Assembly (NCBI GenBank): GCA_026397515.1
Contig: JAPLUU010000014.1
Coordinates: 27,750 to 72,376 of the forward strand
Direction: 5' to 3'
From: a candidate division SR1 bacterium
Lineage (GTDB): Bacteria > Patescibacteriota > Gracilibacteria > Absconditabacterales > Absconditicoccaceae
DNA: 44,627 nucleotides
The notes under the pieces are model-generated. The model was not told the DNA's origin, made no database searches, and saw only the letters and a list, made by a program, of their open reading frames with translations. Position numbers and translations under genes: made by a program. Shown piece after piece: positions 7,834 to 39,728 of the stretch; the stretch's first letter is position 1; every line of letters starts with the position of its first letter.

Positions 7834-7848
7834 ACGGTGGTAAACCGT
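7834..7848. other. Small hairpin after pnp
   Basis: ACGGT-GGTAA-ACCGT forms a 5-bp hairpin 26 bases after the pnp stop. The T-run after it is broken (TTCTT), so it is at best a weak terminator. Confidence 0.35.
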
Positions 7849-7886
7849 TTCTTACGCAAAATATTTTATTTTATTACCTACGCTTC

Positions 7887-8447
7887 ATGAAATTTCTCAA
7901 ATCATTAGGTAAAAATCTATGAATTTTATTAGCCATTTTAGTAGTGTTGGCTCTCGTCAATCGATGGTATCTTGGTGGATTTACAAAAATAGAAGTAAAA
8001 GAACAACCTATGGGACCATATACGATCGCTTATGTACATTTCGTCGGTGAATATGGTAAAGTATGACCATCAATGACCAAAGTATATGACATACTTTCTG
8101 GAGCTTGAATCACGTCATTGACGGGTGTGTGAATTTATTATGACGATCCAGCAGTAGTTTCATGAGCAAAATTGAGAAGTGATGTCGGTGCAGTGATTGC
8201 TGTACAAGATGTACATACATTGATAAAAAACAAAGATATACAGACAAAAACATTTCCTGCGGGAAATAAGATGATTGTTGAATTCCCTATGAAGAACACC
8301 TTGTCTATTATGATAGGTGTAATGAAAGTATATCCAGTAATCACAAAATATATGAAAGAAAAATGATACAAAGCTGTCCCTATGACGGAACTATATGATT
8401 CTGCAGCAAAAAAGATCTATTATATAGCTGATATAGCTGTTAAATAA
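7887..8447 (+). CDS. Membrane-anchored GyrI-like (TEX264-like) domain protein
   Basis: The 186-residue protein starts with a basic tail and one membrane helix (residues about 8-25, GILLAILVVLALVNRWYLGG). It is followed by a domain resembling the GyrI-like/effector-binding fold as found in TEX264-type proteins: an opening strand (GPYTIAYVHFVGEYGKVGPS), YDILSGAGI, GIYYDDP, then TFPAGNKMIVEFPMKN and a final GYKAVPMTELYD. Such domains bind small hydrophobic or nucleotide-like ligands; the ligand here is unknown. The membrane helix suggests the domain sits at the membrane, with orientation undetermined. Seven TGA glycines are needed to read it. The gene ends at one of the two identical 39-bp terminators in the window. 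Confidence 0.75.
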
Positions 8448-8480
8448 GTAAATAAGTCCTAGTAAATCATTTTTTTACAA

Positions 8481-8519
8481 TTTGTACAGTCAAAAGACGC
8501 AGAAAACGCGTCTTTTTTC
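8481..8519 (+). terminator. Terminator, left copy of an exact 39-bp direct repeat
   Basis: The stem is AAAAGACGC (8492-8500) with GCGTCTTTT (8508-8516) and loop AGAAAAC, followed by more Ts. The 39 bases from TTTGTACAGT through the T-run recur identically at 19141-19179. Here it terminates the GyrI-like gene. Confidence 0.9.
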
Positions 8520-8527
8520 ATATTTTT

Positions 8528-8556
8528 TTGTAAAAAAATAGTGGCATGAGTATACT
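8528..8556 (+). promoter_or_regulatory. Promoter of the giant surface protein
   Basis: TTGTAA (8528-8533), a 17-base spacer and TATACT (8551-8556) make a good sigma-70-type promoter. The bases after the -10 box, TAGAATAG, closely match those of the promoter at 30896. A CTAGC-AAAA-GCTAG hairpin (8566-8579) lies in the leader. Confidence 0.6.
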
Positions 8557-8624
8557 TAGAATAGACTAGCAAAAGCTAGAAATCATTGTTGTTTTTATTC
8601 TCTTTATAGCAAGCTTAATGTATA

Positions 8625-11600: not shown

Positions 11601-14600
11601 GCCAACTTTATCACCTGATCAAGCTCCGACTTCCCGTGACTGGGACGAAGTAATGGAGCCATAGACACCACACCAACAATGTCACGAGATTATCTAACCA
11701 ATCCCTTAAATGCCTCTTGATCATATCTCCTTAATTGGTCTTGAGCATTTTCTGCATTTAGAAATAAATTAAGCTATACAGGAACTGATTGAATGCAATA
11801 TAGTTATGGTAGTGGAATCTTAGCACAAGCACAGCCAGTACTCTTTAGTGGGACAACACTTATTGCCTCATGAGTATTTACGGGGACAAATTATATCTGA
11901 TCTATACTAAACAAAATTACAGGAGATCTAATAGGTATAGTAGCAGGTACTGGTACCGCACCGAACGTTACTGTGCTAGGAACAGCTTCTTCGATAGCGA
12001 CCAAATATAATATTTTCTGAGACATATTTACCAATATTTTATGAGTAAATATTAATACAAACACAGGAATAAAATTAACAAACAATGGACTTTGAATAAA
12101 TAGGATAATTACACAGATCTATGATCCTACAACATATTTTGCTACTCATTTTGAAAAATCAGTCATCGTAGAAGATACAGGAAATGATATATTTATTGAC
12201 GATAGTTTCTGGTCAACCAATCCAACAACAGGAGAAATTATAGCTAGATTTTATGGATGATGAGTGGCTAGTAATGATAAAACGGCTTATACTAAATATC
12301 GATGAACCAATACCTGTATACCAAACAACATGACAGTAAGTTACTTAACATGAGGAGGAAATAATATCATCCCAACAACACTATCAACAAACACCATTTA
12401 CATTCTGTGATCAGGAACATATCTACAATCAGCAGTCATCAATATAGTAAATTGCTCTGCTATAATTGGACAAGGAAATGTTGTTATACAACAAACAACG
12501 TCATCGCTCGGTATAATAGCTTGATGAAATCAAAAAAATCGAATATTAGATAATGTAGGGCTTTATAAATCGACAAATACATTATCTCCTTATGGTATAT
12601 ATGCAAATGGAATGACATCTACAACCATAAACAATATAGATATATCATGAGTCACGGGAAGTGCATGAGTATTTTATCAACTTAGTAATTATTCTATAAT
12701 AAATAATGCACAAATATACAACAACAAATATTGAGTACAATATTATGCAACACCATCAGATTACAATATCTTAACAAATAGTAAGCTATTTAATAATTCC
12801 TCTGACGGAGTAACAATTACCTCGTCAACTGGCGGAATTATAGATAATTGTCAGATATATAATAATGGAATCTATGGAATACATTATACACAGAATGCAC
12901 GAAAAAATTCACTCAATAATTCTCAAATATATAATAATGTAAACTGAATACTTTATGATGGAACAAATCCATGAAATAATGTTATCAATAATTCTCAAAT
13001 ATATAACAATACCAACTATGGAATAAATTTCACGTCTTGATCAAATAATATATTTAATAATACGTGGATTTATAATAACGGAACGACAGGAGTATATATC
13101 AATGCAATTTCTATTACCAACAAATACTATGGAACAAACAAAATATTTTGAAATACGAGCGATATTTGATGAACAGCGGCAAACTTAACTGCATGATTAA
13201 ACGGAGATTATCCTGCTCTTGGACGAATAGATGGAATACTAGACCAAACAAATATTCTCTCACGAGATTATTTTACCAACCCCAAAAATAATACATATAA
13301 TTATTTATCTATACGATCTGGGACATTTTCTAGTTTAAGAGGAAACAAAATATTTACAGGAACAACAGGAATACAATATAGTTATGGTAGTGGAATCTTG
13401 ACGCAAGCACAGCCAGTACTCTATAACAGAACTACTTTAGTACTATCATGAACATTTGTCTGAACAAATTATATCTGAAGTTCTATACCCAAAATTACCT
13501 GAGATATTCAAGGTATATGAAGTTATAACGGAATGAATAGTATCATTACATGAATAGTAAGTAGCCCAGCAACCAAGTACAATATCTACGGAGATCTCAC
13601 AAGATTCTTGTATGGTATAGATAGCAATACAAGTACATGAATTACATTCTCATGATGATTAGCAACAGGAGAAATTATTACTCAAATATACGACCCAATA
13701 AATTATTTTGCGACTCATTTTCAAAAAGTTGCGAACATAGATACAACAGCACCATCCACACCAATCCTCGTAAGCCCAAGTAGTGGAACGATGTTCAGTA
13801 CATGATCAGTTCAACTTATATGGTCTGCAGCTATGGACACAGGAATTTGAATATGATGATATATATATCAAGTAAGTACAGATTTGTGATTTTCAACTAT
13901 CATAAATTCTGGGACACAAACCACCACAGGAATATCTCTGAATAATCTCACGAACGGAACATACTATCGAAGAATAGCTGCTTACGACAATGCAGGAAAC
14001 ACATGAACACGAAGTACTATATGGAATTTCAATATCATTATGATCTCAGCACCAGTAGTCGGCATCGGATATATTTCATCATGAATAACGGGAGATAATT
14101 GATGAGTAAAGTATTATAAAGGAATAATAAATATCAGGGCAAGTTTATCATGAACTAATATCACTTCATGTGAATATACGATTAATGGATCATCACGAGT
14201 TATTGCAAACATATGAGTAAACTATTGTGAAGCAACGAATATTAATCCAACAACAGATATTTCTCTCCAATTCCGTGCAACAAATAGTGCAGGTATAAAC
14301 ACATGATGAATCATAAATTATATGTACGATGGTATTTGACCTACAACACCGATATTACTTTCCCCTAGTAGTGGGACAATATTTACTACATGAAACGTTA
14401 TACTATTACGAAACTGAAGTACAGACATAGGAGCGGGCTTGAGTGGCTATTTTTATCAAATAAGTACAGATTCCTGATTTTCAACTATCATAAATTCTGG
14501 AATACAAACCACCACAGGAATATCTCTGAATAATCTCATGGACGGAACATACTATCGAAGAATATATGCTATCGATAACGTAGGGAATACCTGAGCACGA

Positions 14601-14945
14601 AGTGCTCTACGAAATTTCACGATACTACCAGCGATATCTTTTGATATAACTGCACCTACAGCATTAAATATAGGAAACATTTCTGTACCAGAAGCTACTC
14701 AAGTGATAGAAAAAATATTTACATGACTGAGTACATATTTTACAGTCTCTGATTATGTATGAGATGATATAGGCTATTACACGACAATATCTATGACAAA
14801 TCTTGTAGATGGAAATGGAAATATATTGAGTAATGATAATATCGCAATCAAAACAGAATATCGGCAATTACGTGAACATATATACCATTTAGTAATAATG
14901 TCCTTACATTTATCAAAAGAAATGCATGAACAAATGGTGGAATAA
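8625..14945 (+). CDS. Giant beta-helix/Ig-like cell-surface protein, 2106 residues, frameshifted near its C-terminus
   Basis: The protein has a His/Lys-rich cytoplasmic start, a membrane helix (about residues 25-50, ending near TFASGG) and then a very long Asn/Thr/Ser/Gly-rich exterior. Parallel beta-helix rungs of the type NNSQIYNN recur dozens of times, as in pectate-lyase-like and adhesin folds. Three super-repeats begin at 8913, 10497 and 12282 (TAYT..RG, then IPTTL, TIYVL, CSAI(I/V)G, NRILDN). After about 13740 come Ig/Fn3-like modules (TPILVSPSSGT, STDxGFSTIINSG, GTYYRRI, DNxGNTG). More than 100 TGA codons are read as glycine with no TAA or TAG until 14943. The conserved C-terminal domain continues in another frame (see next entry). 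A role in adhesion or host contact is inferred from the architecture. Confidence 0.85.
8913..13740 (+). repeat. Three tandem super-repeats within the giant surface gene
   Basis: The units begin at 8913, 10497 and 12282 and measure about 1.58, 1.79 and 1.46 kb. Each has a TAYT...C...IPTTL cap, a beta-helix body, then a tail with QYSYGSG, YNIFG, INTSTG, ELYDP and YFAxHFEK. The first two tails continue into FWxTNPTTG and lead directly into the next cap. The protein sequence is more conserved than the DNA, indicating old duplications. Confidence 0.75.
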
Positions 14946-20470: not shown

Positions 20471-21412
20471 ATGATGAATCTAACTCCTATCAAAATTGTC
20501 GTTGATGATATCAAAACCATAAAAATCCAGTGAGCAAGCAATGTCGCTAAGGAAGGAATAGATACCTTAGCCAAAGAAATCAAAAACCAAAAATTCAAAT
20601 CTGAAAAAGAATTTGACACGTTTCTCAAACAAGCGATTGTGATTCTCAAACAAGCGAGAGCTACAGAGCCGATGTTATTTAATTGACTCAAATACTGCTT
20701 AGCGAACTACAAAACATTGTTAGCAAAAAAAACAGATCTCAAAACGATGACGATGAAATTATTTCAAGCATGTAAAAATTACTTAGGTGATATAGAAAGA
20801 GAGGAGGCATTGAGGCCACTTATCTGAGCTAGACTTATAAAGAAACACATGAATATTATGACACATTGCCATTCATCATCTGTGATAAAATTACTCGTAA
20901 CCGCCCACAAACAAGATAAAGATATTCATGTCTATAATACAGAGACGAGACCATTATATCAGTGAAGAAGAACCTCACAAGAGCTTATAAAAGCAGGAGT
21001 GACAGATACGATGATTACGGACGATGCAGCTCCGTTTTTCGTAGATAATTTATACGAATCTGATACACATATCGATATGTTGATTATAGGTTCTGATGCC
21101 ATCAAGATGGATGGAAGCATATACAATAAGATTGGAAGTTTCGGATTGGCATTAGCTGCTCGACATTCCAAAATTCCCGTCTATATCGTAGGAAGTCTAA
21201 ATAAGGTAGATACCGAAAACAACGTAAAAATAGAACAAAGATCCGGTAAAGAACTTCGACCAGAAGCTCCGAAATGACTTAGAATTCTCAACTACGCATT
21301 CGACATGGTTCCTGCAAAATTCATCACAGGAATAATCACAGAATATGGTATTATCAAACCTCAAGATATCAAAAAAGCAGTCAAGAAACATTGTCCTTGG
21401 ATGGTGAAGTAA
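20471..21412 (+). CDS. Ribose-1,5-bisphosphate isomerase (eIF2B-alpha family)
   Basis: This enzyme converts ribose-1,5-bisphosphate to ribulose-1,5-bisphosphate, the middle step of the AMP-RuBisCO pathway. The 313-residue protein has a helical N-terminal domain and the eIF2B/MTNA-type catalytic domain. THCHSS places a Cys at residue 133 and GSDAI an Asp at residue 209, matching the catalytic Cys133 and Asp202 known from the Thermococcus enzyme. Other family marks are NTETRPLYQGR, DDAAPFFV and AARHSKIPVYIVG. The alternatives are a methylthioribose-1-phosphate isomerase or an eIF2B-like protein, but RuBisCO and AMP phosphorylase nearby settle the role. Two start codons are adjacent (20471, 20474). 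Confidence 0.9.
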
Positions 21413-21438
21413 AGTTTTATATGGGATATATTTTATGA

Positions 21439-22683
21439 ATGACGGTAGAAGCACCCAAAAATTCTAACAATGAAATAAATAAAGATAAAACCTTGTATGA
21501 TATTGTTCAAGCTATGGGTCTAAATTTTGTTAATGTTGCTCATGATTTGGCCAAAATGGCTGGAATAAAAGATTATAAGGGTACTGCACCTCAAAATATA
21601 GAGATAAGAAGAAAGATTTTATCTGGAGAGTTGATGCCAGTCAAAGACTTGAAAACAGCAAGCAATGTATTTTCTTCAGAAAAACAGAAAGTGATTCTTC
21701 AAGTTATATGAAAAGATATTACGATAGAACAGATGAATACATACATTGCAAATTTACCACCAAATAAGGTAAAAATATTAGAAAACTTAAAAAATACAGA
21801 ATTTGTATGATTTCTTCGTCAAGAAATAAAAACAGTTATTGCTCATGTAGATAAATCAAAGGTAGAAGGAAATACAGATGAAATAAATGTGACTTTTGCA
21901 GAAAGGACAGCAAGTATGATTGAGGTAAATAATTTGGAAACGAGTTTGAGGCTATTTTTGGAAAAAAACAATGAAAATTATGATAACATATATAAAAAAG
22001 CTAATATTATTGAAAAATGGAATGAAAAAGAGTTTTCTTGAACAAAAGATAAATTATTGAAAAAATATAATAATAATGAAGAAGAAGCAAAAAAACATTT
22101 CAATATGACATTTATGACTGCTGAAGTCTATAAAGATAAGTCACTTAGTCAAAATCAAGAATTTAAAAATATTGCGAGTGGTGTATATGCATACAATGAA
22201 TGATTATGAATAGATTTGAAATCTCTATGGTGAGAAGAATTTTATGCAAGCGTACAATCACGATATCTAGAACAAAAGACATATCAAGCACAAAGAGATA
22301 CATATGGTGAGTCTTTTTCGTCAATAGATCAGTTACAAAGCATAGAAAACGATGATATGATTAAGACAAATATAAAAATAGAAAAATGGGTTTTGGAAGA
22401 AAATAAGGATTATGAATATTATAAAAATCTAGTGAAAATTGATACAAATTTCTATAATATTTTACAAAATGATGTTACCTCAAAAAAATTATTAAACATA
22501 GAAAATCCTACAAAAGAAGAAAAAAAGATAATAGTCGATATGATGAAAAAAAAATCATGATTAACGGAAGAATCTGAAAAATGACTCAAAGAAGAAACTA
22601 ATAATATAATTAAAGAGCAGCTTAAATACTTTGAAACTCTATATGGATATCGATCTTACTGAGCAAGAAAATGTATTGGATAA
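21439..22683 (+). CDS. Hypothetical protein, 414 residues
   Basis: I do not recognise this protein. It is a charged, mainly helical protein with many Lys/Glu/Asn residues, no signal peptide and no membrane helix (NKDKTLYDIVQAMGLNFVN near the start, RYLEQKTYQAQRDTYGESF in the middle). It follows the isomerase by 26 bases; an in-frame ATG at 21421 would add six residues, one of them TGA-encoded. About nine TGA glycines lie in frame. It ends in TAA at 22681, overlapping the start of the next reading frame by 41 bases. The last 15 residues (TLYGYRSYGARKCIG) look unlike the rest, which suggests that the true protein continues in the next frame. Confidence 0.7.
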
Positions 22684-23635
22684 ATTTATTCTCCAACAAC
22701 AGAAAGATTTCATTAAAAAGGATGGAGAAGATGTAGTCTTGGATATCGATGGTACCATAAATGGAAAGAAAATGAAACTTTATTATAATCTCAGTAAATG
22801 AACGCTTCAGCAAGAAGAATTTCTCTCTAGAAGTGGCATAAACACACCATTTTCTATCAATGATCCCGTTGGTGGAAAAAAAGATGTAACCGGTATACAA
22901 CTACCAAAATTCCAAGATTTTATGACGTGAGCAGGAGATATTGATTATAAAAGTGTTATGAATATTTCAAAGTCTCTGGATGAATATAAAAAAAATGTAG
23001 CTAGTGAACTCAAACTCAATATCAAAAAACAAGGTACTTGGGATATGGATACAGAGAAAGATATATTCGAGAAAAAAATACTCAAGGATATTGCAGCGCA
23101 AGAGATATGTACTTTTATGGGCAAAAATAAGGATATTCCAGCGGAAACTCTTTCTAGAGAAGAAAACCCAGTAGCCTACGATATGTATTCAGTTATAGAT
23201 AATAGTCTTAATTATTATACAATAGACGAGCTAAAGACATTTAGAACATATATATCTCATCTTATTACAAAAAAAGAGTCGTATGTAGGTAATCTCAAAG
23301 CCAAAGACAATAATCAAGAAAAATATCTGCTATGATTGGTTGGTAATCCCAAGACTTTATTGGATAAAGAATTCCAAAAAACTAAAAATAGTTATGCGTT
23401 GTTTCTTTCTCTATTTCAAACCAAAGAATCAAATATATCTATTATAGATCTCACAAGTTTAGGAAATTTTATCACAAAATCAGAGCTAACAGAAAATAAA
23501 GATATGTCATATTTGCCCAATCTTGAAATGCATACGAGCTTCAAAAATGCTATGTCAGAGATGGAAGATAATATGTCCTTGGCAGGATTAAACAAAGATA
23601 TCGAAAATTTGCCAGAAACCAAAAAATCAGTATAA
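22643..23635 (+). CDS. Hypothetical protein, 330 residues, possibly the second half of the preceding gene
   Basis: This frame opens at 22610 and has its first ATG at 22643 (MDIDLTEQENVLDKF). It is charged and helical like the preceding protein, without signal peptide or membrane helix (DEYKKNVASELKLNIKKQG, YYTIDELKTFRTYISHLI). No ribosome binding site is visible and the start lies inside the previous gene, one base out of frame. Either it is translationally coupled or the two are one 740-residue gene broken by a +1 frameshift between 22610 and 22681. Function unknown. Confidence 0.65.
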
Positions 23636-23665
23636 TTATAAGATACTTTATCTATTAAACATATC

Positions 23666-24238
23666 ATGATGGCTTTAGAGCAATCACAACAAAATGAAAT
23701 TAAGCAAGAAGTCTTGAAGAATGCATGAGCTACTACAACAAAATTTTCCAATACAAACTATAAAACTGCACAGGATAAGACAGAAAAAAATCATATTATC
23801 AGTGAAAAAGAAGCAGATGATGATTTGAATAAATTCTTAGAAGAAAAATTTAAAGACGATATGAAAGTAGTGTGGACTGAATCTACAGCATACATGGCAA
23901 ATGGAGATTTTCAAAAGGCTCTCGATGTCCTATATCCTGTGATAGAAAAGAATAAAGATTTTTTATTCGAACAATTTAATGTTGATATTAATATCTGGTG
24001 AAATGCCTGAGAATTATATGCGGATACGTATAATTTGAATTTGTCTGATCATAACTGAGGAGAAAGTAAATCAATTAAAGATTATGAAACACAAACAGCG
24101 AAAATGTATCAAGAAATAAAAAATCAAGAAGGTGAAAATAAATGAAAAAATTTATGAACAGCTTCATTGACTATGTATCTTTTGATTATGAATGATCGTA
24201 ATGTTAAATTAAAAAAAATACTATTTGGTGATAAATAA
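23666..24238 (+). CDS. Hypothetical TPR-like helical protein, 190 residues
   Basis: I do not recognise a family. The central part reads like one or two tetratricopeptide-type helices (MANGDFQKALDVLYPVIEKN, then GNAGELYADTYNL), and the N-terminus is Gln/Lys/Asn-rich. About six TGA glycines occur. There is no export signal. It lies 30 bases after the previous gene and 39 bases before RuBisCO, so the three unknown genes 21439-24238 appear to be one unit inserted between isomerase and RuBisCO. The final segment (SLTMYLLIMNDRNVKLKKIL) is moderately hydrophobic. ATG 23666 and 23669 are equivalent starts. Confidence 0.7.
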
Positions 24239-24277: not shown

Positions 24278-25738
24278 ATGGATATCAAAGAACTTCTAAC
24301 TACGCTTAATCCTCACCAGTCAGCGTATGTAAACTTAGATTTGCCTAACCCAAAAAATGGTGAATATATGCTTTGTGTATTTCATTTGATCCCAGGAGGA
24401 AAATTGAATATGCTCCAGGCAGCATGTGAAGTATCAGCAGAATCATCTACCGGGACCAATTTCGCAGTACAGACAGAGACGGCATTTTCTAGAGAGATGA
24501 ATTCTCTCGTCTATAAAGTAGATATTGAAAAAAACCTAGTATGGATCGCATATCCACGAAGATTATTTGATCGTGGTGGTAACGTACAAAATATATTAAC
24601 CTATATTGCAGGTAATGTCTTCGGTATGAAAGAAGTACAAGCATTGAAACTTCTTGATGTACGATTTCCATCAGCAATGCTAGAACAATATGATGGACCA
24701 AGTTATACATTGGACGATATGAGAGCATACTTGAATGTCTATGATAGACCAATCCTTGGAACTATCGTGAAACCTAAGATGGGGCTTACTTCTTCAGAAT
24801 ATGCTGAGGTAGCATACGATTTTCGAAGAGGAGGTGGAGATTTCGTGAAAAATGACGAACCACAAGCAAATCAAGATTTCTGTCCGTATGATAAAATGGT
24901 AAAATATGTAACAGAAGCCATAGCCAAAGCCGTAAAAGAAACATGACATAAAAAGGTTCATTCATTTAACGTTTCAGCATCAGATTACGAAACCATGATA
25001 GCGAGATGTGAGATGATTGTAAATTCAGGTATGGAAAAAGGTTCCTATGCTTTTCTTATTGATGGAACAACAGCTGGATGGATGGCAGTACAGACCTTAA
25101 GAAGAAAATATCCCGACGTATTCATTCATTTTCACAGAGCAGGACATGGGGCATTTACGAGACCAGAAAATCCAATCGGATATACTGTTTTAGTACTATC
25201 TAAATTTGCTAGATTGGCAGGTGCATCTGGTATCCATACGGGTACAGCAGGAGTAGGAAAGATGGCGGGAACCCCAGAGGAAGATGTAACTGCGGCGCAT
25301 AATATTTTCTGACTTGATGAACCAGGACATATATTTGAACAATCACGAGGAGAAATTCCAGAAAATGATAAAGATCGAATCAAAAAAGTACAAGAAGATC
25401 ATCATCAACATGTAACTAAAGAAGATGACAGTTGGAGAAATATGAAAAAATGTTGCCCAATTATCTCAGGAGGACTTAATCCAACACTCTTGAAACCATT
25501 CATCGATGTGATGGAAGATGTTGATTTTATTACTACCATGTGAGCTGGTTGTCACGCACACCCGGGTGGGACACAAAAAGGCGCAACAGCATTAGTTCAG
25601 TCATGCGAGGCATACAAGAAAGGAATAGATATTCATGAATATGCAAAAGACCATGAAGAATTGGCTCAGGCGATTGAATTCTTTGAAAAGAAAGATAACA
25701 AAGATGTTAGACACGCTGCTAGAAGAGAATCAAATTAG
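24278..25738 (+). CDS. rbcL: Ribulose-1,5-bisphosphate carboxylase/oxygenase, form II/III
   Basis: RuBisCO carboxylates ribulose-1,5-bisphosphate to two 3-phosphoglycerates. The active site is complete: K165 and K167 in TIVKPKMG; K191 (carbamylated), D193 and E194 in FVKNDEPQ; H286-R287 in HFHRAGHGAF; loop-6 K328 in GVGKMAG; and S397 in ISGGLNP. The numbering is within one residue of the form II Rhodospirillum enzyme. The length is 486 residues, and the inserted region after HIFEQSRGEIPEND with a His-rich stretch (QEDHHQHVTKEDD) fits the form II/III type known from CPR bacteria and methanogens. TGA glycines include the ones in NIFGLDE and TMGAGCHAHPGG. In this context it serves nucleotide salvage, not a Calvin cycle. 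Confidence 0.96.
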
Positions 25739-26393: not shown

Positions 26394-27896
26394 ATGAGAA
26401 ATGTTTTTAATGCCATAACAAAATTTGTAGATCTTACCGAAGGAGATACTCTGACGATATGGATCAATGAAGCACAAGCCGCAGCGTTTGGTATCAATGC
26501 AATGGATAAAATTGCTATGAATTATAATGGTCAGGAATATGTCCTAGACGCTAATCTTACGCATAGATATGTAGATCAAAATGAAGTAGGGATCCCAAGA
26601 GATGTGAGTGAAAAATATAAAATCCCGGTATGATCTAAGGTAACGGTCAGCTTCACACAGACAAGTTCTGCTGCTTTGGATGCATTAAAAAGAGGATTGA
26701 ATGGAATTTCATTTACAGAAAAAGATATTAAACTGATTATGGAAGATATTTCCAATAACCGTTTCGCTGATACCTTAGTGACCTACTTTTCTGCACTTGG
26801 ATTTATTCGTAAATCTAGTGATAAGGAGATTTATCGAACCGCAAAATATATGGCTGAAGCTGGTGAGATGATCAAGTTTAAATGAATAGTTGCAGACAAA
26901 CACTGTATGTGAGGAGTACCAGGTAATGAGACAACGATGATTATGATTCCGTTACTTGCTTCGTTATGAATCAAGATGCCTAAGGTATTTTCCAAGGCTA
27001 TTACGACTCCAGCAGCGACAGGAGAATGTGTGAGTGTGTTGATGGATATTTCGTTTACTAAATCAGAAATCGAAGCATTAGTTAAAAAAAATAATTGCTG
27101 TCTAGTATGGGGTGGTGGATTGGATATGGCACCAGCTGATGAAAAATTAATCAAAGTTGCATATCCATTGAGCATGCAATCATACCCGAGAACCATCGCG
27201 AGTATTATGGCCAAGAAATACGCAGTAGGAATCAATCATTCATTGATAGATATTCCCGTTTGACCTACAGCAAAAGTGCCTGATATGAAGACTGCTAAAC
27301 GACTCAAGAAAAAATATGAATATGTAGGAAAGAAACTTGGAATGAAAGTACACGTCGAGATTACTAGCGCATTACAGCCTATCGGAGGTGGTATCGGAGC
27401 AACACTTCAGGTCAGAGAAGTTTTGCGTGTATTGCAACAGCATCCAAGTAGACCACAAGACCTAGAAGATAAAGCAGTATATCTAGCAAGCAAGATTATT
27501 GAACTTGTAGGTATGGCAAAAGGTAAACAAGCACATGATCTAGCATATGGACAATTAATATCATGAGCAGCACGGAAAAAAATGCAGAAAATAATTTCTG
27601 CTCAACATGGTAATCCAGATGTACACTCAGAAAAATTGAAATTAGCTGAACATACCAAAGATATTTTTGCAACCAAGAATGGTAAAGTAGTTGATATCGA
27701 TATGAAAACACTCAATCTTCTCGCAAGGACACTTGGTGCACCACTAGATCTCAAGGCTGGAGTATATCTCTATCAAAAGCTTGGTGGGCAGGTCAAAAAA
27801 GGCGAGAAATTATTCGCTATTTATGCTGATGAGAAGTCTAAAATTGATCTAGCGAGAGAATTTTTGAAAGAAAAAAATATTTATACTATCAAATAA
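26394..27896 (+). CDS. AMP phosphorylase (archaeal DeoA-like)
   Basis: This enzyme splits AMP (and CMP/UMP) with phosphate into base and ribose-1,5-bisphosphate, the first step of the pathway. The 500 residues match the AMP phosphorylase type, which has an N-terminal extra domain (residues 1-85) ahead of the pyrimidine-phosphorylase fold. The phosphate-binding motif is DKHCMGGVPGNET, followed by SKAITTPAATGECVSVLMD and CCLVWGGGLDMAPADEKLI. The C-terminal domain starts near KIISAQHGNPD. Short thymidine phosphorylases lack the N-terminal domain, which favours AMP phosphorylase. Five TGA glycines include one in GIVADKHCMGG. Genes for the next two steps lie upstream on the same strand. Confidence 0.93.
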
Positions 27897-29190: not shown

Positions 29191-30339
29191 ATGAAAAAAA
29201 TAATATTATCAATAGTTATGTGTATATCGTTAATGGGTGCTGTGGGAGCGTTTGATTTTTCTGGTTGTCAGGAAAGAACATTCACCGTAACTGCATATTA
29301 TTCACCAGAAAGTGGTCAGATATTTTATTATAAACCGACATTTCTGGATGAAGTAAATCTTAATGGTGAAGGACATTATGGGGCTTCAGGAAAAAAAGTG
29401 TTTAATGGAATGTTAGCATGACCAGTGACGTATCCTTTTGGTTCAATAATTTATTTTCCATGATTTGGTGTAGGAGAAATCGCTGATAGAGGAGGGGCAA
29501 TTGTATTGTCTGGTGAAAGAGGACAAAGTTGTGATCGTATCGATATCTGGATGTGAAATGGTGAAGAATGACTTATTAGAGCGCTCACTTTTGGCAAAAA
29601 AAATATGACAGGATATTTTTGTGATAGTACAATAGTTAAGACCTCACCTAAGGATTTGCTACTACGAGACAAAGTTCCTGTACTCAAAAACTTTTTCGAT
29701 ATCGCGGTATGGATACAACAACTCGAAGAATGAAGAAACGATATTTGGACACGAACATTACAAAAATATTTAGTAAAATTATGATATCTCAACAAAAAAT
29801 ATCGAAATGGAAATTACGAAAAAAATACAAAAAAAGCGCTCTGTACATATCAAGTTGCCAAAAAAATAATTTCTTCAAAAAGTCCTGACTGTTGAACTTT
29901 TGGCTCGATGACAAGATATACGATGAAAATAGATATGCAGAAAAAGGGTTTTTTGCCAGATAATTTATATGCGACAGGGATATTTACTGCTATCATAAAT
30001 TTAGCAAAATATTACAACTGAACACCGACTGAAAGCCTCCCTGTTAAGGGAGGAAACGAAGGGGTGTTTGATATAACTCAAAAACAAAATATCTTTAAGT
30101 TCTATAGAGCATATACTAGGTGACAGCAAAATTCAGAAATAAAAATCCTCCAAGTATTTTTACAGGCTCAATGACTTTATAGGTGAACTATTGATGGAAT
30201 ATATTCCAAAACTACAACCAATGCACTCTATGAATTCCAAAAAAAATATTCACTGATTTCCGATAGTGATCCATCGATATTGAGAGGATTTCTAGGTCCC
30301 AAGACAAGATCAAAGATCAATGAACTCAGAATGAAATAA
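29191..30339 (+). CDS. Secreted 3D-domain protein with C-terminal peptidoglycan-binding domains
   Basis: The 382-residue protein has a signal peptide (MKKIILSIVMCISLMGAVGA). A 3D-type double-psi barrel domain follows, as in lytic transglycosylase-like and stationary-phase survival proteins (FTVTAYYSPESGQ, YGASGKKVFNGMLAGPVTYP, GEIADRGGAI with the first Asp, and CDRIDIWMGNG with two more). Two or more peptidoglycan-binding-type repeats complete it (TRTLQKYLVKLGYLNKK, ILQVFLQAQGLYRGTIDGIY, TTNALYEFQKKYSL, LGPKTRSKINELR). It probably acts on the cell wall, its own or that of a host. TGA glycines lie in catalytic-domain positions (MLAGPV, FPGFG). A strong terminator follows. Confidence 0.87.
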
Positions 30340-30956: not shown

Positions 30957-31241
30957 ATGGAACAAAAAAAGCAATTACTCATAAAAGTACTTAAAAAACT
31001 TCAGCCATATCGAAATCTAGCTGAAGGGATTTTAGCTTTGGTGGAAAGTAGCTATGTAGATGAAAAGACGATAGATGGAATCGTACATATCTTAGCCATA
31101 TCTATTAAAAATGTTAAGGATACATGAGATAAAAAGAAAATGATGAAATGATTGGATGTTATGAAAAAAATAAAAACATTAGAAGATCAAGAGCATCGTA
31201 AAGATGAAGAATCTGCAGAAAGTATTTTATCAAAAATATAA
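30957..31241 (+). CDS. Small helical protein, 94 residues
   Basis: This Lys/Glu-rich, all-helical protein starts MEQKKQLLIKVLKKLQPYRN, continues LAEGILALVESSYVDEKTID and ends with a charged helix (KKIKTLEDQEHRKDEESAES). Two TGA glycines break it under the standard code. It is the first gene after the promoter at 30896 and stops five bases before the 2,282-residue gene, so it is almost certainly co-transcribed and perhaps translationally coupled with it. I do not recognise it; a partner or chaperone role is only a guess. Confidence 0.7.
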
Positions 31242-31246
31242 TCTTT

Positions 31247-34200
31247 ATGGGAGATGTTTTAAAACAAATTGATAGGAAGGAGGGCGATAATAATAAAGAA
31301 ATCGATCTCAATGAAATCCAGAAAGCGTTGGATGAATGATTTTTTGATAAAAAAGATAAAATTTGAAATGTAATCAAGGTGTTGGATGAAAACGAAAGTA
31401 AATTGATTGCGAGCTATACTGAGTCATTAATCACAGGAGTTTCAGATATTTTCAAAAAGCTTGGAGAAAATAAAAATGATTGTTCATTATTGACGGTACA
31501 AGAAAAAAAAATGTTGCAATTGTATGATGTTACATTACTCCAAAAGGATGAAACAGGAATCATAGATGGTAATATTACTGATTATAATGCAATCCAAAAA
31601 ATAGAAGATCAGTTTATAAAAACATTAACCAATGAAAAAAAGTTTCCATTTTTTCTTCAGGAAGCTAGTAATGATGGTAAATATTTTGCTGACAAAGAAG
31701 AGATAACATACGAGAATGGTAAGTTAGTATACAACAAATGGTCTCAAAAAATAGTAGGAAGCGCTCTGGGTGAATTAAGTATGGATCAAGATACCATCAA
31801 TGATTTCATAGACAAATCCAGGATAGCAGCGAAGCAATGAGCTATTCAGTGATATATCGATCAATTGCCTGTAGTGGTATGACAGACATTTTTACTATCC
31901 AAGGAAGATAATACAGTAAGTATTACGGTTGAAGAGGGTAGTGTAGATATGTCAGAGACGATAAAAATTGATGATATTACTGATGCTACCATGGTGAGTG
32001 AAGATGTATTTATCAAATATATACAACCAAAGATAGATGTTCTTGAGAAGAAACATCACAAGATAGATGAAATTAATTTTGATACAGACAAAAAAACTAT
32101 AAGTACAGCAGAAATTAATATATCACTTAACGAATTCACTCCCGAGGATCGAAAAGATGTCAAAGCATCTATGGCAGAAGAGAAAAATAAGGATGTAGCG
32201 GAAAGTTTGAAAACAGGATTGACGACATATTACGATAGTATAATGAAAACGTTCGCCAAAAAACCTGATACAATTCCTTCCATAGCTATACCGATATTGA
32301 ATCTCTATCTCTATCTTATCGAATGAAAGGATGTTGTGGTAAATGCTGAAAAATGAACGATATTAAAAAATTATTTAGCTACAAAAAAAGCTGAACGAGT
32401 AAATAGTTTAAGTGAAGTAGTTGCGGATGATTATTATATAAATAATCTCACCAAAGATTTCGGATTAAAAACATTGAAAAAATTTCCCACGCTCAAAGAA
32501 GCGGAAAATATTTCAAAAGATACTATAACAGACTATTTTGATCTGTCAGATGAAAATGCTACTGACGAGAATAAAGAGATGATAGCAAATAATTTGAAAT
32601 CATGGGCAATCGATTATCTGACTTTAGATCCGAAAGCGGTAATTCCAGAGAATAGTACTTTGACAAGTCTTAAAATCACAAAAAAAAATAAGGAAGCAGA
32701 GGTAAAAACCAATGAGGCAACCAAAAAAGTTTATGATTCATTAGTAGCTAATAAGACCGCATTTGAGAGTGGAAAATTTAAAATTTCGAGTAGTAACGTT
32801 ACCAACACATGTAAAGCATTGGCTTATTTTATAAGCGAGAATTATGATGATGTAAAAATGAAAAGCATTATTGCAAATCGAAGTGCAAATGATGAAATGA
32901 TGAAATTTGTAATAAAAAACGATACGTTGGACATAAATAGTACTGATAAAGATAATCCACTCAAAACATTGGAAAATATATTTAATATCTATAGCATATC
33001 TGTTTTAGCTAATTTGCCTGATAGTAAAAATCCTGATATCCGGGATGAACGTTTATTGAAGATGTATACTATACTCAAGGATACTCCTTCACGTGAGATT
33101 ACGGATGCTGAAATAGATCTTGCAATACCAAGTAAAAACGCTGCTGATACCAAGAAAGCAACATATTTAAAGGCACATAAGGCAGATGTTAAAATAGTAC
33201 TTACAAAATGGAAACGAAGAGAGACATACGCAGATAATACAGAATTGGTTTTGGAGAATAGAAAGATGAAATTTCCTGATACTATGACGGATGATACGAA
33301 AAAATTCTGGGATATATACAATGGTACACTTAATACGATAAATATAGAGATAGCAGCACATAAAAAAGCTATTGAAGACGCTAGAACAAATACCAATAAA
33401 GCATATGAAGAATTAGCAAGCATAGATACAGAGATATGACGAATTTCAAATAAAATGTTCTATGGAACGGCAACAACTGAAGAAAGTGCGAGATATAAAA
33501 AATTGAAAGAAAAAAGAATACCGTATGCTGCGAAAGAACGTATTGCATATGATAGTATCAACAGCACAACAATAGATTATTATAATTATATGAAGACAGT
33601 TACTAGTACATTAGATACATTAAATGATAAATATATTGATACAATTATAAAGGTACATGGTTATCGCATAGCCGAAGTACAAGCTTTGGGAGCCATAGAT
33701 AGTCCATTCTGAAGTTGAATAAGATTGGATTTCAGTAATTATAGCGGTATCAAGTGATGAACAAAATCAGTGATTAGAGATACATTTTGGGAAAAGGTTG
33801 GTGATAAACGAGAATCAGATCCTGAATGAGCAATAATAGATCTTGTAGCTATTATATGAGCTGCAATAGTCGCAGCTATTGCAGTAGCGGCTACTGACTG
33901 AGCAGCTACGCCATTTGTTACTATGCTTGTAGCATGAGGAACATTTTTTGCTGTAGATAATATTATTAAAATGGTTGGTCATGGTGTTGTTGAAACAATC
34001 AAGAATGAAAATAATCCAGAAGGAATGAATAGTTTCTCGTATGGTGCACTGAAATGATTTGGTGCTATTGATGAAGGAACAGGCAAACTCAAAGATACGT
34101 CAGATATTTTATTGTCAAAATGATTTGAGCTTGTTAATGATATATTACTTTATGGAGCTTTAGGAAAAACACTTGCTGGAGCATCGAATATTGCAGGAAA

Positions 34201-37200
34201 AATTATATCAGAAGCATGAACAAAAGTTGCCGAATCAGCTGTTGGAAAAGTAGTGACCAAAGGATTGGCACTATGAATTGAATGAACAGCATTTAACTTC
34301 TATAACAGTTTAATATCAGGTCCTATGCAAACAGGGATAACGGTTCTTGTAAAAGACGGTGACGCTGACAAAGCTTGGTCAAGTATGAAAGCGAGTCGAG
34401 CAGATGCAGTAAACCCAGTAAATATGGTATATGGAATTCTTTATAATACTGCGTTTATTGGCTGTATCAAAGCATGAAGCGGAATCGTTTCTCCAATAAC
34501 AGCAAAAATGATAGATAGAGTGGAAAACACCAAAATAGAAACCAATATAAAAAATGCGGAGACATATTCTATAGAGATAAAGGCCAAATTTGCTGAGCTT
34601 CAGAAAGAAGGATATAAAATGGAGATGAAACAGGAAAATGGTCTCATTACGTGATTTGAAATCAAGGATGCAACCTGAATTATTGTAAATATCAAAGAGG
34701 TATCACCGTGAATAGATGCGTTAAATACCAAGCTCACGGAAGCAAATGATGCTATCCAGAAATGATATGATAAGATAATTATCAAATCGAGAGCAGAAAT
34801 GGAATTAGAAACCAGTAAGGGTAAATTATTAAAACTCATGACGGATTATAAATTACTCAATACATTCAGATCACCAGAAAAAATATTGGATGAAAAAATA
34901 GCAAAACTTAAAATAAAAAGTGATGCTTCTTCCAAAGAAGCATTAGTAGAATTAGAAAAAATAAAAGCAGAATATGTTGCGGCAAAAAACGCGGTGGATA
35001 GAGAAGATCAAGTAGTTGAAAATAAAATAGTTGAAAATCAATGAGTAACCGCTGACAAAGTAGTAGATAATGTTGTTACTAAAAAAACTGTTAGTCGGGA
35101 AATAGTTAAAGCAAACGCAGCTATTACTGATCCGACAGAAAGGATCAATGCAGCAAAATTACTTCCATGACTCGAAAAAATAACACCAGAACAAGAACAA
35201 GCTATTCTAGCTGCACATAAGGTATGAGGTATCAAAGACGAGGTATATAAATATACCCGAGCTGAAATCAGAGAAAAAGTGAAAATATTAGAAAAAGCAT
35301 GATTTGATAAGGATCAAAGAAGGGCACTTATAGAAAACGGAATCTGTGGACGTATAGAAGACCATATTATGCTTATAAAAGAAAATGTAGCAAAGGTGGA
35401 AGCAAAGCTAAAAGAAAATTGAATTGATGTAAATACATCTTCTAGTGAAGAAGTAGCTAGCTGAGAAAAGCTTAATAAGGATACTGTTGAAGCAGAAATG
35501 GATTCATTAGATAAAGGACTCCAAGAGATTGAAAAAGGGTTAGAAAGTACATCCCCGTCATCTAAAGAAATAACAAAGAAAAAATTAGATATCATAAAAG
35601 TGCAGTTAAAAAAATTGATTGACTATGCAACAGATGAATTAAAATCATTGAAATCTGATGTTAAAACAGCAAATGGATTTTTTGAAAAATTAGATGCTAT
35701 CATAGTAAGAGTATCAAAAATAGTATCGATTTTAGTAGAAATAATTCCTGAGTCAAATCATGAAGAGTTTATAGCAATTAATACCATCGATTTCTTACTC
35801 TTTGAATATATGGAGATAAGAATGAGTCGTCAAATAGATGCAATAAAAGCAGATGAAATAAAAATAGATGAGATAAGTACAGCTGAGATAAAGGCAGATG
35901 AAATAAAAATAGCTGGTATAAAAGCAGATGAAATAAAAACAAATGAGATAAAGGCAGACGAGATAAAAATAGATAAGATAGAGGCAAATGAAATAAAAAT
36001 AGATAAGACAAAAACAAATGAGATAAAGGCAGATGAAATAAAAATAGATAAGATAGAGGCAAATGAAATAAAAATAGATAAGATAATAAAGGCAGATGAA
36101 GTAAAAATAGATAAGACAAAAACAAACGAAACAATTTTAGAAAATATAAAAAGTGATAAATACAAAGAGACTCAACCGTTTAAAGATTTTTTAAAGGAAT
36201 ATACTACATTGAGAGATATCGAGGTTGCAAAAGGTAAAGAAGTAGATTTTGATAAGAGATTTTTGACTACTCTGGAATTACATGATAAATGACTTGAATA
36301 TTATGATAAAACTTGAGAATTGGTTACGGGGAAGAGTATTAATGATTACTTAGAAAATATATGAGTAGAACCAAAAAGTGATTTATGAAAAAAAATTAAT
36401 GAATATGCATTTTATCAGACATTAGATAATCCACCACAATATAATTCTCATGGATTTGATCATTCGATAAATGTTACTAGTTATGTAGAGATGATATATA
36501 AGCAGGTTCCTGAATTTGTAGATAAGGTAAAAAATAGTTATTGATTAAATGAGAAAACAAGTCAATTTGTATTAAAAATGACTGGTGTTCTTCATGATTT
36601 TTGATATCCAGAAACAGAAACCATTAAGGCACCAAAATCCTTACATGGTCCCTTAGGTGCGATATTATTTGAAAAAAACATCATGCCAGAATTCAAAAAA
36701 CAGATACAATTAATGGATCCAAATATTACTGAAGAAAATCTCAATCAAGTATGTAAGGATATGTATAATGCAGTATTCTTTCATAGTGCAGATAAAGTAG
36801 AAGTTACCTATAATGGGAAAATGACCTATAAAAATATGACATTTTTGTTTGAAGATGCATTAGGTGTAGATGGTATCGTGGATGCATTGAATAAAAGTTG
36901 AATGTTTACTGATCAAATAGATAAAGGAGAAATTATATTTGAAATAAATTCAGAAAAGACTGATCTTTCTGATAAAATAAAAACAAAATATGGTGATAAA
37001 AACGTAACAACACAAGCTAAAGAGTTTAAAGGAAGAAAGGTGGGAAATGATATCCCATGAGTATGAATAGAATTTCAGACTTCGAGCATAGATTCACCGT
37101 TATCTTCTATTATCAGAATAGCGGACAATCTCGATATAGCATATAGTAGACTTTCTCCCACACAGAAAGATCCAGGATTCCGTGATATTATTCACTCGTT

Positions 37201-38095
37201 CGGTCCTGAATGTACGTGATGAAAATTGATGGAGCTTATGGAAAAGTATGATGATGCAATTAAAGATTTGGAAAAGGGTAAGGTAGAACAAGTTGATGTA
37301 GATAAAGCATTGAGTAAAATTCAGGAGTTTATCAAAAATAATTCTAAGATAAAAATTTTCATTAATGGGGTAGAGACAGAGGTAGCTATATCTGAATCTG
37401 ATATAATCGATTGAGGAAAACCTAATACGGATAATTATAAGGATTTTATAATAAAACAAATATGAGTCACTGATGTTACGGTAAAAGAGGTAGGAAAGAA
37501 ACAGAATAGTATTTCTGTGAGACATTCCTGATGACTTGAACCTATCCATGATTTATCCGATGTAAAAATTAATTATGTTGAAGAAAGTTGAAATTATGTA
37601 ATAAAGGTCAATGTAAATAAAGCAGAATTCGATAAATTAAACGCAACAACAGTTATGGAAGAAGGCTTAGATGTTAATGGAAATAAAATTTATATAGAAG
37701 TTGGTATCTGAGAATATCACATCCGAAGATTATATGAAGCTACAAGAAGTATTGATTTATCAGGCAAGAAGTGTAAAATACAAGTAATGGGTGATGATGG
37801 AAAACTTATAGATATGTGATATACATATCAGGGTACGAAAGCATATGAAGGAAAGGTCTCGTTTGATAAATGAGAAACATATCAAGAAGTAAAAAATAGC
37901 AGCAATTTTTGAACAAGTTATGAGGTGAAGGAAGTAGATAATAATTGAGATTCAGAATATTTCTTATCGTTCGACCAGGCAAAAAATACCACTATATCTA
38001 CACTGGGAAAAAATATCATCACTATCTGAGATAAAAAATATTTTAGACTTACAAAAACCGATGTCCAGATATTAAGTGAAGCATCCAAAATATAG
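31247..38095 (+). CDS. Giant 2,282-residue protein with five-residue repeats and an HD-type hydrolase domain
   Basis: One frame runs 6,849 bases from ATG 31247 to TAG 38093 with only TGA codons inside. The first 860 residues are charged and helical. Residues about 861-905 are hydrophobic (LVAIIGAAIVAAIAVAATDG, TPFVTMLVAGGTFFAV) and may enter a membrane. A long coiled-coil-like part follows, then about 19 five-residue repeats (IKADE, IKIDK, IEANE) at residues about 1533-1628. An HD-superfamily site is seen with H1735 (HGFDHS), H1783-D1784 (LHDFGYP), H1800, H1846 (FHSAD) and D1960 (RIADNLD). Such domains hydrolyse phosphate esters, often nucleotides. No signal peptide is visible. The whole is not a family I recognise. 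Confidence 0.85.
35843..36130 (+). repeat. 15-bp tandem repeat array encoding five-residue repeats
   Basis: The 96 codons hold about 19 units of the type I-K-x-D/N-E/K, with one extra Ile codon breaking the phase once. Larger blocks (KADEIKIDKIEANEIKIDK) are themselves duplicated, pointing to recent expansion. The minus strand is open across it only because of this repetition. Confidence 0.85.
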
Positions 38096-38118: not shown

Positions 38119-38865
38119 ATGGAAGATATAGAACAGTATCTATATGAGTGAAACAGCGAAGAAAAGATTGATATGTGGTTAAATAGCCAATCAGGAAAAT
38201 TTTATGATGCATTGAAAAAAATAGGAGAGAAATATGGAAAAGAAGTGAAAGTTGATCCTCAGAGTATCATGAAGAGAAAAGAGATTTATTCTTTGTGAGA
38301 TGAAAAGGTTGCACTTGAACGCCATATAGATGGATGAACCGTAGGAGTCGATGATGGGACATTACAGACGTATGTTAAATTATGAACGATGGTTGCATAT
38401 CCATGGTTCAAGGAGGCATTAGATATAAGTAATATATGATATCAGACCATCAACGAAGTTCGACTTGGACATGCTATCATCTGATGAGGTATTTCAAACG
38501 AGGTGAAATTCAATTATAATTATATAGCCAATGCTATAGAATATAAATTACCACTGAGTGATAGTGAAGTAAAAAATAAAATAATTAGTCTTATAAAAGA
38601 TGCTATTACTCCTTTTCTAGGAGAAAATTATAGTGTAAAGATAGAAGATGATATATATATAGTACCATCTAATAATGAAGCCAAGAAAAATATGCTTGAA
38701 CATTGAGATATCTTTATGTCTATGATCCATGAAATGACTCAAGACGTGATTATTGGAAAAATACAAGAAGGTATGAAAGGTATAAAAAAACAATATATCG
38801 AAAAGTATAAAAATTCCCAACAAGAAAACACCGAAAACATTAATACATTAAAAAAAGAACTGTAA
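38119..38865 (+). CDS. Hypothetical protein, 248 residues, downstream of the giant HD gene
   Basis: I do not recognise this protein. It begins MEDIEQYLYEGNSEEKIDMW, contains a Gly-rich middle (DGGTVGVDDGTLQTYVKLG, AIIGGGISNEV) and ends in a charged helix (GMKGIKKQYIEKYKNSQQEN). There is no signal peptide or membrane helix. At least ten TGA glycines are used. It starts 23 bases after the giant gene's stop and is the last gene of that unit, before the promoter of the ribosomal genes. Its fixed position suggests that it works with the giant protein. Confidence 0.75.
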
Positions 38866-39077: not shown

Positions 39078-39728
39078 ATGACAATAACCAAAGCAAGAAA
39101 AGATGAATTATTTGCAAAATACAAAAATGATCTAGCTGGTGCAGCAAACGCAGTGATTGTAAAACAATCAGGAATAGCTGTTCCCGTTGCAAACAAGATC
39201 AGAATGGAACTTAAAACTGCAAACGGAGAGATGAATATCATTAAGAAGAGAATTTTTCTTAAAGCCCTCAAAGACGCAGGACTTGAAGATGTTAATGTAG
39301 ATACATTAGAATGATCAGTTTTTGCATTATATGCACATGAAAATGAATTTGGACCGCTCAAAGTAATCAATAAATATTTGAAAGAGTTTAAAAAAGAAAA
39401 TAAAGGATCAGAATTCTCATTTATAGGATGATGGTTTGAAAAAAAATGGCAAGGTAGTGAATATGTTAATGAACTTGCTAATGTACCTACAAAAGAAGAA
39501 TTATTATCAAAACTTTGTTACTTATTCAACTATCCATTACAATCATTCGCTTGTGTTCTTAGTGAGATTGCAAAGAAAAATGGTGGAGCAGTAGAGGAAG
39601 TTAAAGCTGAGGTTAAAGAAGACGCTAAAATAGAGGAACCAAAAGTTGAAGAAGCAAAAGTTGAAGAAGTTAAAGTTGAAGAAGTTAAAGCAGAAGAGGC
39701 TCCAGCAGAAGAAGCTAAAGCCGAATAA
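39078..39728 (+). CDS. rplJ: Ribosomal protein L10 with an acidic repeat tail
   Basis: L10 forms the base of the ribosomal stalk and carries L7/L12 dimers. The N-terminal RNA-binding part is recognisable (ITKARKDELFAKYKND, IKKRIFLKALKDAGLED), as is the middle (SVFALYAHENEFGPLKVINK). The C-terminal helix that binds L12 (YPLQSFACVLSEIAKKNGG) is followed by about 35 residues of Glu/Ala/Lys/Val repeats (EEPKVEEAKVEEVK), making 216 residues against the usual 165-175. Three TGA glycines are used. The gene is preceded by the L10 leader and followed by rplL. Confidence 0.93.

What the first reader, a model, noticed from the sequence alone, without database searches (positions are those of the whole stretch)
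31247..38095. Undescribed 2,282-residue protein with an HD hydrolase domain
The longest intact frame in the window combines a hydrophobic segment, long charged helical regions, a five-residue repeat array and a full set of HD-site residues (H1735, H1783, D1784, H1846, D1960). It heads a unit with two small unknown genes. Such size in a reduced genome implies an important function, possibly in cell contact, defence or nucleotide signalling.
Basis: partly seen in the sequence, partly recalled or inferred. Interest (0 to 1): 0.7.

Follow-up and report, generated by a model that had tools for sequence, protein, structure and literature searches.

The report
Giant modular HD-enzyme effector with partner
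A tiny episymbiont-type bacterium carries a real 2,282-residue protein whose tip is an HD hydrolase paired with a dedicated neighbour gene, at a locus where related species swap in other enzyme tips, so it looks like a custom toxin or effector gene rather than a housekeeping one.

Summary
The open frame is real, but only under genetic code 25 (TGA = Gly; 54 TGA codons). The HD region comes as a two-gene cassette: a ~230-320-residue gene directly follows it in all eight loci, homologous to the window's 38119-38865 gene in six of the other seven. The rest of the protein belongs to a hypervariable locus. A 94-residue helical gene precedes a giant gene whose ~100-residue EF-hand-like head is shared across the family, while the body and C-terminus diverge. 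In relatives the tip is replaced by a RelA/SpoT-like domain followed by an HD_4 hydrolase gene (the toxSAS-type toxin/antidote pairing), a Zeta-toxin-like kinase, calcineurin-like phosphoesterase, HATPase or 2H phosphoesterase. Best reading: a polymorphic-toxin-like effector whose tip is an HD phosphohydrolase and whose downstream gene is the cognate immunity or regulatory partner. HD fold, cassette linkage and tip swapping are shown; toxicity, immunity, substrate and delivery are inferred.

The parts
30957..31241 (+). 94-aa helical protein (P0003). Family-wide small gene lying directly upstream of a giant gene; candidate chaperone, loader or targeting partner.
   Evidence: 20 of 41 genomes; 18 of 25 P0003-like ORFs are followed by an ORF of at least 900 aa, gaps -22 to 47 nt. 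Alignment.
31247..38095 (+). 2,282-aa giant modular protein (P0001), code 25
31247..31546 (+). Residues 1-100: N-terminal head domain with an EF-hand-like loop, shared by P0003-linked giants
   Evidence: held-out HMM domain E 4.8e-8; hhalign E 2e-4 and 3e-4.
32063..32335 (+). Residues 273-363: second copy of the head domain
   Evidence: held-out HMM domain E 9.4e-9
33818..33919 (+). Residues 858-891: strong hydrophobic segment inside a Gly/Ala-rich region; possible membrane insertion
   Evidence: hydropathy 2.74
35099..35359 (+). Residues 1285-1371: shared 'LLG-AGF' domain found upstream of many different C-terminal enzyme domains
   Evidence: (40 of 192 genomes of the class)
35832..36131 (+). 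Five-residue (15-nt) repeat linker, IKADE/IKIDE type
36404..37222 (+). Residues 1720-1992: HD hydrolase domain; H1735, H1739, H1783-D1784, H1800, H1846, D1849, D1960, D1963 invariant
   Evidence: AF2 model; fold comparison
37505..37810 (+). Residues 2087-2188: conserved C-terminal domain of the HD family (RHSGG...VGIGEYHIRRLYEATRS)
38119..38865 (+). 248-aa partner (P0002), co-inherited with the HD domain; candidate immunity or regulatory protein
   Evidence: E 7e-15 to Parachlamydiaceae, 1e-12 to Uhrbacteria; held-out HMM 2e-14; AF2 model, pLDDT 81.7
29191..30339 (+). Upstream syntenic anchor (secreted-looking conserved protein P0004)
   Evidence: 71-74% identical in three congeners
39078..39728 (+). 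rplJ, downstream syntenic anchor (followed by rplL, rpsB, tsf, rpsF)
   Evidence: 64-85% identical in congeners

Best explanation
P0001 is a modular, polymorphic-toxin-like giant effector. An N-terminal head (two copies here), expressed just after a small helical partner (P0003), is the constant part. A long helical, probably membrane-active body and the LLG-AGF domain follow. The C-terminal tip is an exchangeable enzyme, here an HD phosphohydrolase with a five-ligand H...HD...H...H...D pattern predicted to hold two metals and hydrolyse a phosphoester or phosphodiester of a nucleotide. The downstream gene P0002 is the tip's dedicated partner, most likely an immunity protein or inhibitor that protects the producer. 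Shown: frame, HD residues and fold, HD-P0002 linkage across lineages, head sharing, swapped tips, and a RelA/SpoT-like tip with an HD_4 gene in two relatives. Inferred: toxicity, the immunity role, the substrate, membrane activity, and delivery into a neighbouring cell.
For: HD core: nine putative active-site residues invariant in eight homologues; AF2 core pLDDT 83-95; VIA-align Z 11-12 to PPX/GppA and PDE HD folds. HD-P0002 pair: the downstream gene follows the HD gene in every locus, including one whose contig end cuts it to 127 aa; homology significant for WIN, L015, L074, L075, L076, L080 and L078. Constant head plus P0003. Swapped tips at P0003-linked giants: RelA_SpoT (G006), Zeta_toxin (G188), Metallophos (G026), HATPase_c (G014), HD (window). 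The tip follows its neighbour gene, not the body: G006 and G009 share RelA/SpoT-like sequence (E 3e-25) and HD_4 neighbours (E 3e-27); G005 and G008 share tips and neighbours. Bodies stay 31-45% identical while tips differ (G008/G006, G004/G001, G026/G009). Exported alarmone synthetases are documented as toxic when they act in the cytoplasm (PMC12691689), and polymorphic toxins are defined by variable tips with linked immunity genes (PMC3482391).
Against: There is no signal peptide or recognised trafficking domain on P0001, and no secretion system is linked to the locus. An HD hydrolase as the toxic tip has little precedent known to me; HD enzymes more often act as antidotes (as the HD_4 genes probably do here). 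P0002 has no recognisable immunity fold. The HD-P0002 co-variation test is only borderline (Mantel p 0.064, n = 7). The wider tip list also includes signalling domains (FHA, PP2C, cNMP-binding, kinases), which could mean regulation rather than toxicity. The RelA_SpoT hit is below Pfam's cut-off (20.5 vs 27 bits), and in G009 that domain sits in a separate reading frame beyond the giant's stop.
Confidence: 0.55

Rival explanations
1. Intracellular defence (abortive-infection type): the fast-evolving body senses phage or stress inside the cell, the swappable tip (HD, RelA/SpoT-like, Zeta) shuts growth down, and the downstream gene is the antitoxin. Nothing leaves the cell.
For: No signal peptide. 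toxSAS modules act in antiphage immunity (PMC11559606, abstract). The tip/antitoxin logic is the same. A few tips across the class resemble PADLOC effectors such as TIR and PD-T4-6 kinases.
Against: HD region, P0002 and P0003 have no PADLOC hit. The locus is a fixed syntenic position beside ribosomal protein genes, not a defence island. The hydrophobic body suggests membrane interaction. P0003 is found in most relatives of the family whatever the tip.
Confidence: 0.2
2. Giant surface or attachment protein whose enzymatic tip processes host-derived nucleotides or nucleic acids for nutrition (scavenging).
For: Giant, mostly membrane-assigned proteins are described as host-recognition proteins in Vampirococcus (PMC8080830). 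That genome lacks nucleotide synthesis, so an ecto-hydrolase would be useful.
Against: No adhesion domain and no signal peptide; tips in relatives include kinase, Zeta and RelA/SpoT-like domains that need ATP or GTP, and a dedicated partner gene would be unnecessary.
Confidence: 0.12
3. Cytoplasmic signalling scaffold: P0002 and the body regulate an HD phosphodiesterase that degrades an internal (cyclic) nucleotide signal.
For: Fold neighbours include cyclic-nucleotide PDEs. Tips in other giants include PP2C, FHA, cNMP-binding and HATPase domains.
Against: Tips are replaced by unrelated enzymes at the orthologous locus of sister genomes, which a conserved signalling pathway would not tolerate.
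Confidence: 0.13

Closest known systems
[quoted passage not shown] 2012, PMC3482391)
   Same: Constant N-terminal part, exchangeable C-terminal enzyme, immediately downstream partner gene, a shared domain in front of the tip, rapid divergence at a fixed locus
   Different: No known trafficking domain (TPS, Rhs, PAAR, LXG, PT-VENN); new head domain plus a 94-aa upstream gene; HD tip not among the classical toxins as far as I know; toxicity untested
toxSAS toxin-antitoxin pairs and exported alarmone synthetases (PMC11782079, PMC12691689)
   Same: Relatives G006 and G009 have, at or directly after the same kind of giant, a RelA/SpoT-like domain followed by an HD_4 hydrolase gene
   Different: In the window the HD enzyme is in the giant (tip position), its motif is not HDxxED, and the neighbour gene is not an enzyme of known fold
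Giant host-recognition proteins of Vampirococcus/Absconditabacteria (PMC8080830)
   Same: Same broad lineage (code 25), very large proteins with hydrophobic segments
   Different: Those were described with adhesion domains (PKD, fibronectin, DUF11, integrin); this family has enzymatic tips and a coupled small gene
HD/PDEase superfamily phosphohydrolases (PPX/GppA domain III, class I PDEs, dGTPase/SAMHD1)
   Same: HD signature and fold (Z 11-12)
   Different: No family-level sequence match; own conserved motifs (HGFxHS, HDxGYP, HSADK, RxxDNxD) and a C-terminal RHxGG...EY domain

Membership tests
HD superfamily metal-dependent phosphohydrolase | H...HD...D ligand set conserved in homologues | tested here: met
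   H1735, H1783, D1784, D1960 invariant in 8 of 8, plus H1800 and H1846
HD superfamily metal-dependent phosphohydrolase | HD fold | tested here: met
   core pLDDT 83-95; best Z 11.7 (rmsd 3.6, 175 aligned), all top rows HD/PDE-type folds. Foldseek alone gave no E below 0.1.
(p)ppGpp hydrolase (RSH, HD_4) | HDxxED motif and PF13328 match | tested here: not met
   Motif is HDFGYP; no PF13328 hit at E up to 1, while the downstream genes of G006 and G009 do match
HD-GYP c-di-GMP phosphodiesterase | HHExxDGxGYP motif | tested here: not met
   Helix motif is HSADK; the GYP after HD is in a different position
dNTPase (dGTPase/SAMHD1) | Family-level sequence or fold match | tested here: inconclusive
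   No Pfam or NCBIfam hit; dGTPase and SAMHD1 among weak Foldseek rows, E 0.12 or worse
Cyclic-nucleotide phosphodiesterase | Hydrolyses cyclic nucleotides | not testable with these tools
   Fold similarity only
Polymorphic toxin system | Shared N-terminus with exchangeable C-terminal enzyme domain | tested here: met
Polymorphic toxin system | Linked downstream immunity gene specific to the tip | tested here: inconclusive
   HD-P0002, RelA/SpoT-HD_4 and G005/G008 tip-neighbour linkages found; immunity itself untested
Polymorphic toxin system | Recognised trafficking domain or signal peptide | tested here: not met
   No Pfam or NCBIfam trafficking domain on P0001; N-terminus charged, not a signal peptide. 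A new trafficking domain (the head) is possible. For this reason it is called polymorphic-toxin-like, not filed as a member.
Polymorphic toxin system | Toxic to target cells, delivered outside the producer | not testable with these tools
toxSAS toxin-antitoxin (for relatives G006, G009) | RelA/SpoT synthetase fold next to an HD hydrolase gene | tested here: met
   PF04607 E 6e-4 (below cut-off) in G006; homologue in G009 E 3e-25; PF13328 E 1.5e-13 and 8e-19

The most novel reading that the evidence does not exclude
Absconditabacteria and related Gracilibacteria run an undescribed polymorphic effector system. A 94-aa helical loader plus an EF-hand-like head carry exchangeable enzymes through a membrane-active giant body into neighbouring cells. 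In this genome the cargo is a new class of toxin, an HD phosphohydrolase, with its own new immunity family (P0002), which also travels as a separate two-gene unit in other Patescibacteria and a Parachlamydiaceae genome.
Probability: 0.35. Interest if true: 0.82.

Novelty: new variant of a known kind. Interest (0 to 1): 0.64.

Why it matters
How episymbiotic and predatory Patescibacteria act on other cells is largely unknown, and their giant genes are mostly unannotated. A constant head plus a small upstream gene gives a handle to list such genes across the group. A tip with a dedicated downstream partner gives a directly testable toxin/immunity pair (HD + P0002), and the RelA/SpoT + HD_4 version is a built-in positive control with known biochemistry.

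Tried and rejected
Pfam, NCBIfam, PHROGs and PADLOC gave no meaningful hit on P0001 (HD region in PADLOC); End3 and Decapeptide matches are coiled-coil or repeat noise below cut-off. Sequence search of solved structures with profiles of HD, P0002 and LLG-AGF gave nothing. A Foldseek search of P0002 found no fold (best E 0.22, best VIA Z 4.7). IMG/VR and plasmid searches for the HD family were negative, so there is no evidence of phage or plasmid carriage. A similarity of the L016 downstream gene to the HATPase region of L052 was taken as chance. A claim of HD-P0002 co-evolution was dropped as only borderline. hhalign of the window body against relatives' bodies found only the head, so whole-length orthology is not claimed. 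Surrounding genes of HD-P0002 loci in other phyla are ordinary housekeeping genes, not defence islands. A virB4/TraG-like ATPase occurs in all 21 genomes searched, but nothing ties it to this locus. Promoter and terminator scans around the unit were at chance level.

Full report
WHAT IS THERE. The window lies in a 1.21-Mb, 23-contig, 95% complete genome. The genome reads TGA as glycine, as SR1/Absconditabacteria and Gracilibacteria do. Under table 25 the frame 31247-38095 is open for 2,282 residues with 54 TGA codons; under table 11 it is broken. Independent support for TGA = Gly comes from code-11 homologues: the TGA-encoded G1786, G2095 and G2096 sit in invariant glycine columns. The gene lies between two small genes, 30957-31241 (94 aa) and 38119-38865 (248 aa), rather than heading them.

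THE HD REGION. No Pfam or NCBIfam HD model reaches P0001. Homologues were found in Patescibacteria genomes (G041, G038, G101, G193), and by a genome-collection scan in Peregrinibacteria, Uhrbacteria, Peribacteria, a Parachlamydiaceae MAG and another bacterium. Some of these are the same contigs seen in both searches. In the eight-sequence alignment, at 24-31% identity to the window, H1735, H1739, H1783-D1784, H1800, H1846, D1849, D1960 and D1963 are invariant. Two homologues give sub-threshold Pfam HD hits on the same stretch. The AlphaFold2 model has a confident core (pLDDT 83-95 around the HD helices; whole model 63.7). A structural comparison ranks PPX/GppA domain III and class I PDEs first (Z 11-12). 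That establishes an HD-type fold but not the substrate. The ligand pattern H...HD...H...H...D suggests a two-metal site (inference). It is not an RSH hydrolase (no HDxxED motif) and not HD-GYP.

THE PARTNER. In every HD locus the next gene, on the same strand and within 90 nt or overlapping, is a 224-321-aa ORF; in L078 it is cut by the contig end at 127 aa. The window's P0002 matches the Parachlamydiaceae one at E 7e-15 and the Uhrbacteria one at 1e-12, and a profile built without it finds it at 2e-14. L015, L074, L075, L076 and L080 are also recovered when held out and L078 by profile; L016's is positional only. So HD + P0002 is a cassette that exists independently of the giant: in Uhrbacteria and Parachlamydiaceae the HD proteins are only 741 and 723 aa. 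P0002 folds confidently (pLDDT 81.7) but resembles nothing solved.

THE GIANT LOCUS. In congeners the interval between P0004 (or its neighbours) and rplJ-rplL-rpsB-tsf-rpsF is syntenic and holds a P0003-like gene plus a giant where the contig covers it. Flanking genes are 64-91% identical (rpsF 55% in the most divergent), P0003 44-61%, but the giants share with the window only a ~100-residue head (held-out HMM E 5e-8; hhalign 2e-4 to 3e-4) and, in some, the LLG-AGF domain. The window's protein carries the head twice (1-100 and 273-363). Of 25 P0003-like ORFs, 18 are followed by an ORF of at least 900 aa at -22 to 47 nt. Many heads read like an EF-hand loop (for example DRNKDIAITGQE, DINQDFNITQKE), with only sub-threshold Pfam support. 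In the held-out test the head was recovered for nine of twelve giants; L051, L052 and L057 were not recovered.

SWAPPED TIPS. Where bodies are still comparable, they remain 31-45% identical over 680-1,100 residues and then lose all similarity (G008/G006, G004/G001, G026/G009). Tips recognised at P0003-linked giants: HD (window), RelA_SpoT-like (G006), Zeta_toxin (G188; the giant's start with P0003 in front is in L153, the tip in L142), Metallophos (G026) and HATPase_c (G014). G010 has 2H-SAK and FHA on a contig-edge fragment. The LLG-AGF domain occurs in 40 of 192 genomes of the class, mostly in large proteins. The sequence behind it matches kinases, Metallophos, Zeta toxin, calpain protease, PP2C and cNMP-binding among others.

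TIP AND NEIGHBOUR TRAVEL TOGETHER. G006's RelA/SpoT-like tip is followed by an HD_4 hydrolase gene (E 1.5e-13). G009, whose body is unrelated to G006's, has a homologous RelA/SpoT-like ORF directly after its giant (E 3e-25) and a homologous HD_4 gene next (E 3e-27). In G009 the RelA/SpoT ORF is in another frame beyond the giant's stop; I left it as it is. G005 and G008 share both a related tip and a related downstream gene. With HD-P0002 this makes three tip-neighbour pairings. The RelA/SpoT plus hydrolase pairing is the logic of toxSAS toxin/antitoxin pairs (PMC11782079), and exported alarmone synthetases inhibit growth when in the cytoplasm (PMC12691689).

INTERPRETATION. A constant head, a variable tip and a linked partner are the hallmarks of polymorphic toxins as defined in PMC3482391, where a linked immunity gene is the distinguishing feature. 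I therefore read P0001 as a polymorphic-toxin-like effector with an HD tip and P0002 as its immunity or regulatory partner (0.55). Secretion is not shown: no signal peptide or known trafficking domain was found. A VirB4/TraG-type ATPase exists in all 21 genomes searched, in line with a T4SS-like apparatus reported for Patescibacteria (PMC12102498), but no link to this gene was found. The main rival is an intracellular abortive-infection system with the same tip/antitoxin logic (0.2). A signalling scaffold or surface scavenging enzyme is less likely because unrelated enzymes replace the tip at the orthologous locus.

LIMITS. Pfam support for some tips is weak (RelA_SpoT 20.5 bits against a 27-bit cut-off; Metallophos 22.3 against 21.5). 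Genomes are MAGs and several giants run off contigs. Only one genome carries the window's HD version within its family, so selection on the HD site rests on distant homologues. The HD-partner co-variation test was borderline.

Noticed in passing
L051 (G006) 6826-13225 (-): Giant with a RelA/SpoT-like C-terminal domain followed 25 nt later by an HD_4 (p)ppGpp-hydrolase-type gene; homologous pair after the giant in L021 (G009) 787-2645.
   Followed up: partly
G000:C20:38770-42290 (L045 8770-12294): Second P0003-like gene plus 1,068-aa gene in the same genome; this paralogous locus is much better conserved among congeners (25-41% over most of the length) than the window's giant.
   Followed up: partly
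window 8625-14945 (+): 2,106-aa protein with three large blocks of NNSQIYNN-type repeats, probably a right-handed beta-helix surface protein, with a hydrophobic N-terminal segment.
   Followed up: no
window 20471-21412, 24278-25738, 26394-27896: By eye: R15P isomerase-like protein, RuBisCO and AMP phosphorylase, i.e. the AMP salvage set known from SR1/Absconditabacteria.
   Followed up: no
window 21421-24238 (+): Three consecutive unknown ORFs (420, 330, 190 aa), the first two overlapping in different frames; possibly one large gene broken by a frameshift or an assembly error.
   Followed up: no
Class-wide, e.g. L119, L127, L142, L022: The LLG-AGF domain sits ahead of calpain-like protease, cNMP-binding plus Zeta-like, Zeta toxin and 2H-SAK domains in large proteins of 0.3-2.9 kaa; no Pfam model covers the LLG-AGF domain itself.
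   Followed up: partly
L076 5066-8035: A Parachlamydiaceae MAG carries the two-gene HD + P0002 unit between ordinary genes (mutY-like, glycosyltransferase, sodium symporter), suggesting transfer between episymbionts and intracellular bacteria.
   Followed up: partly
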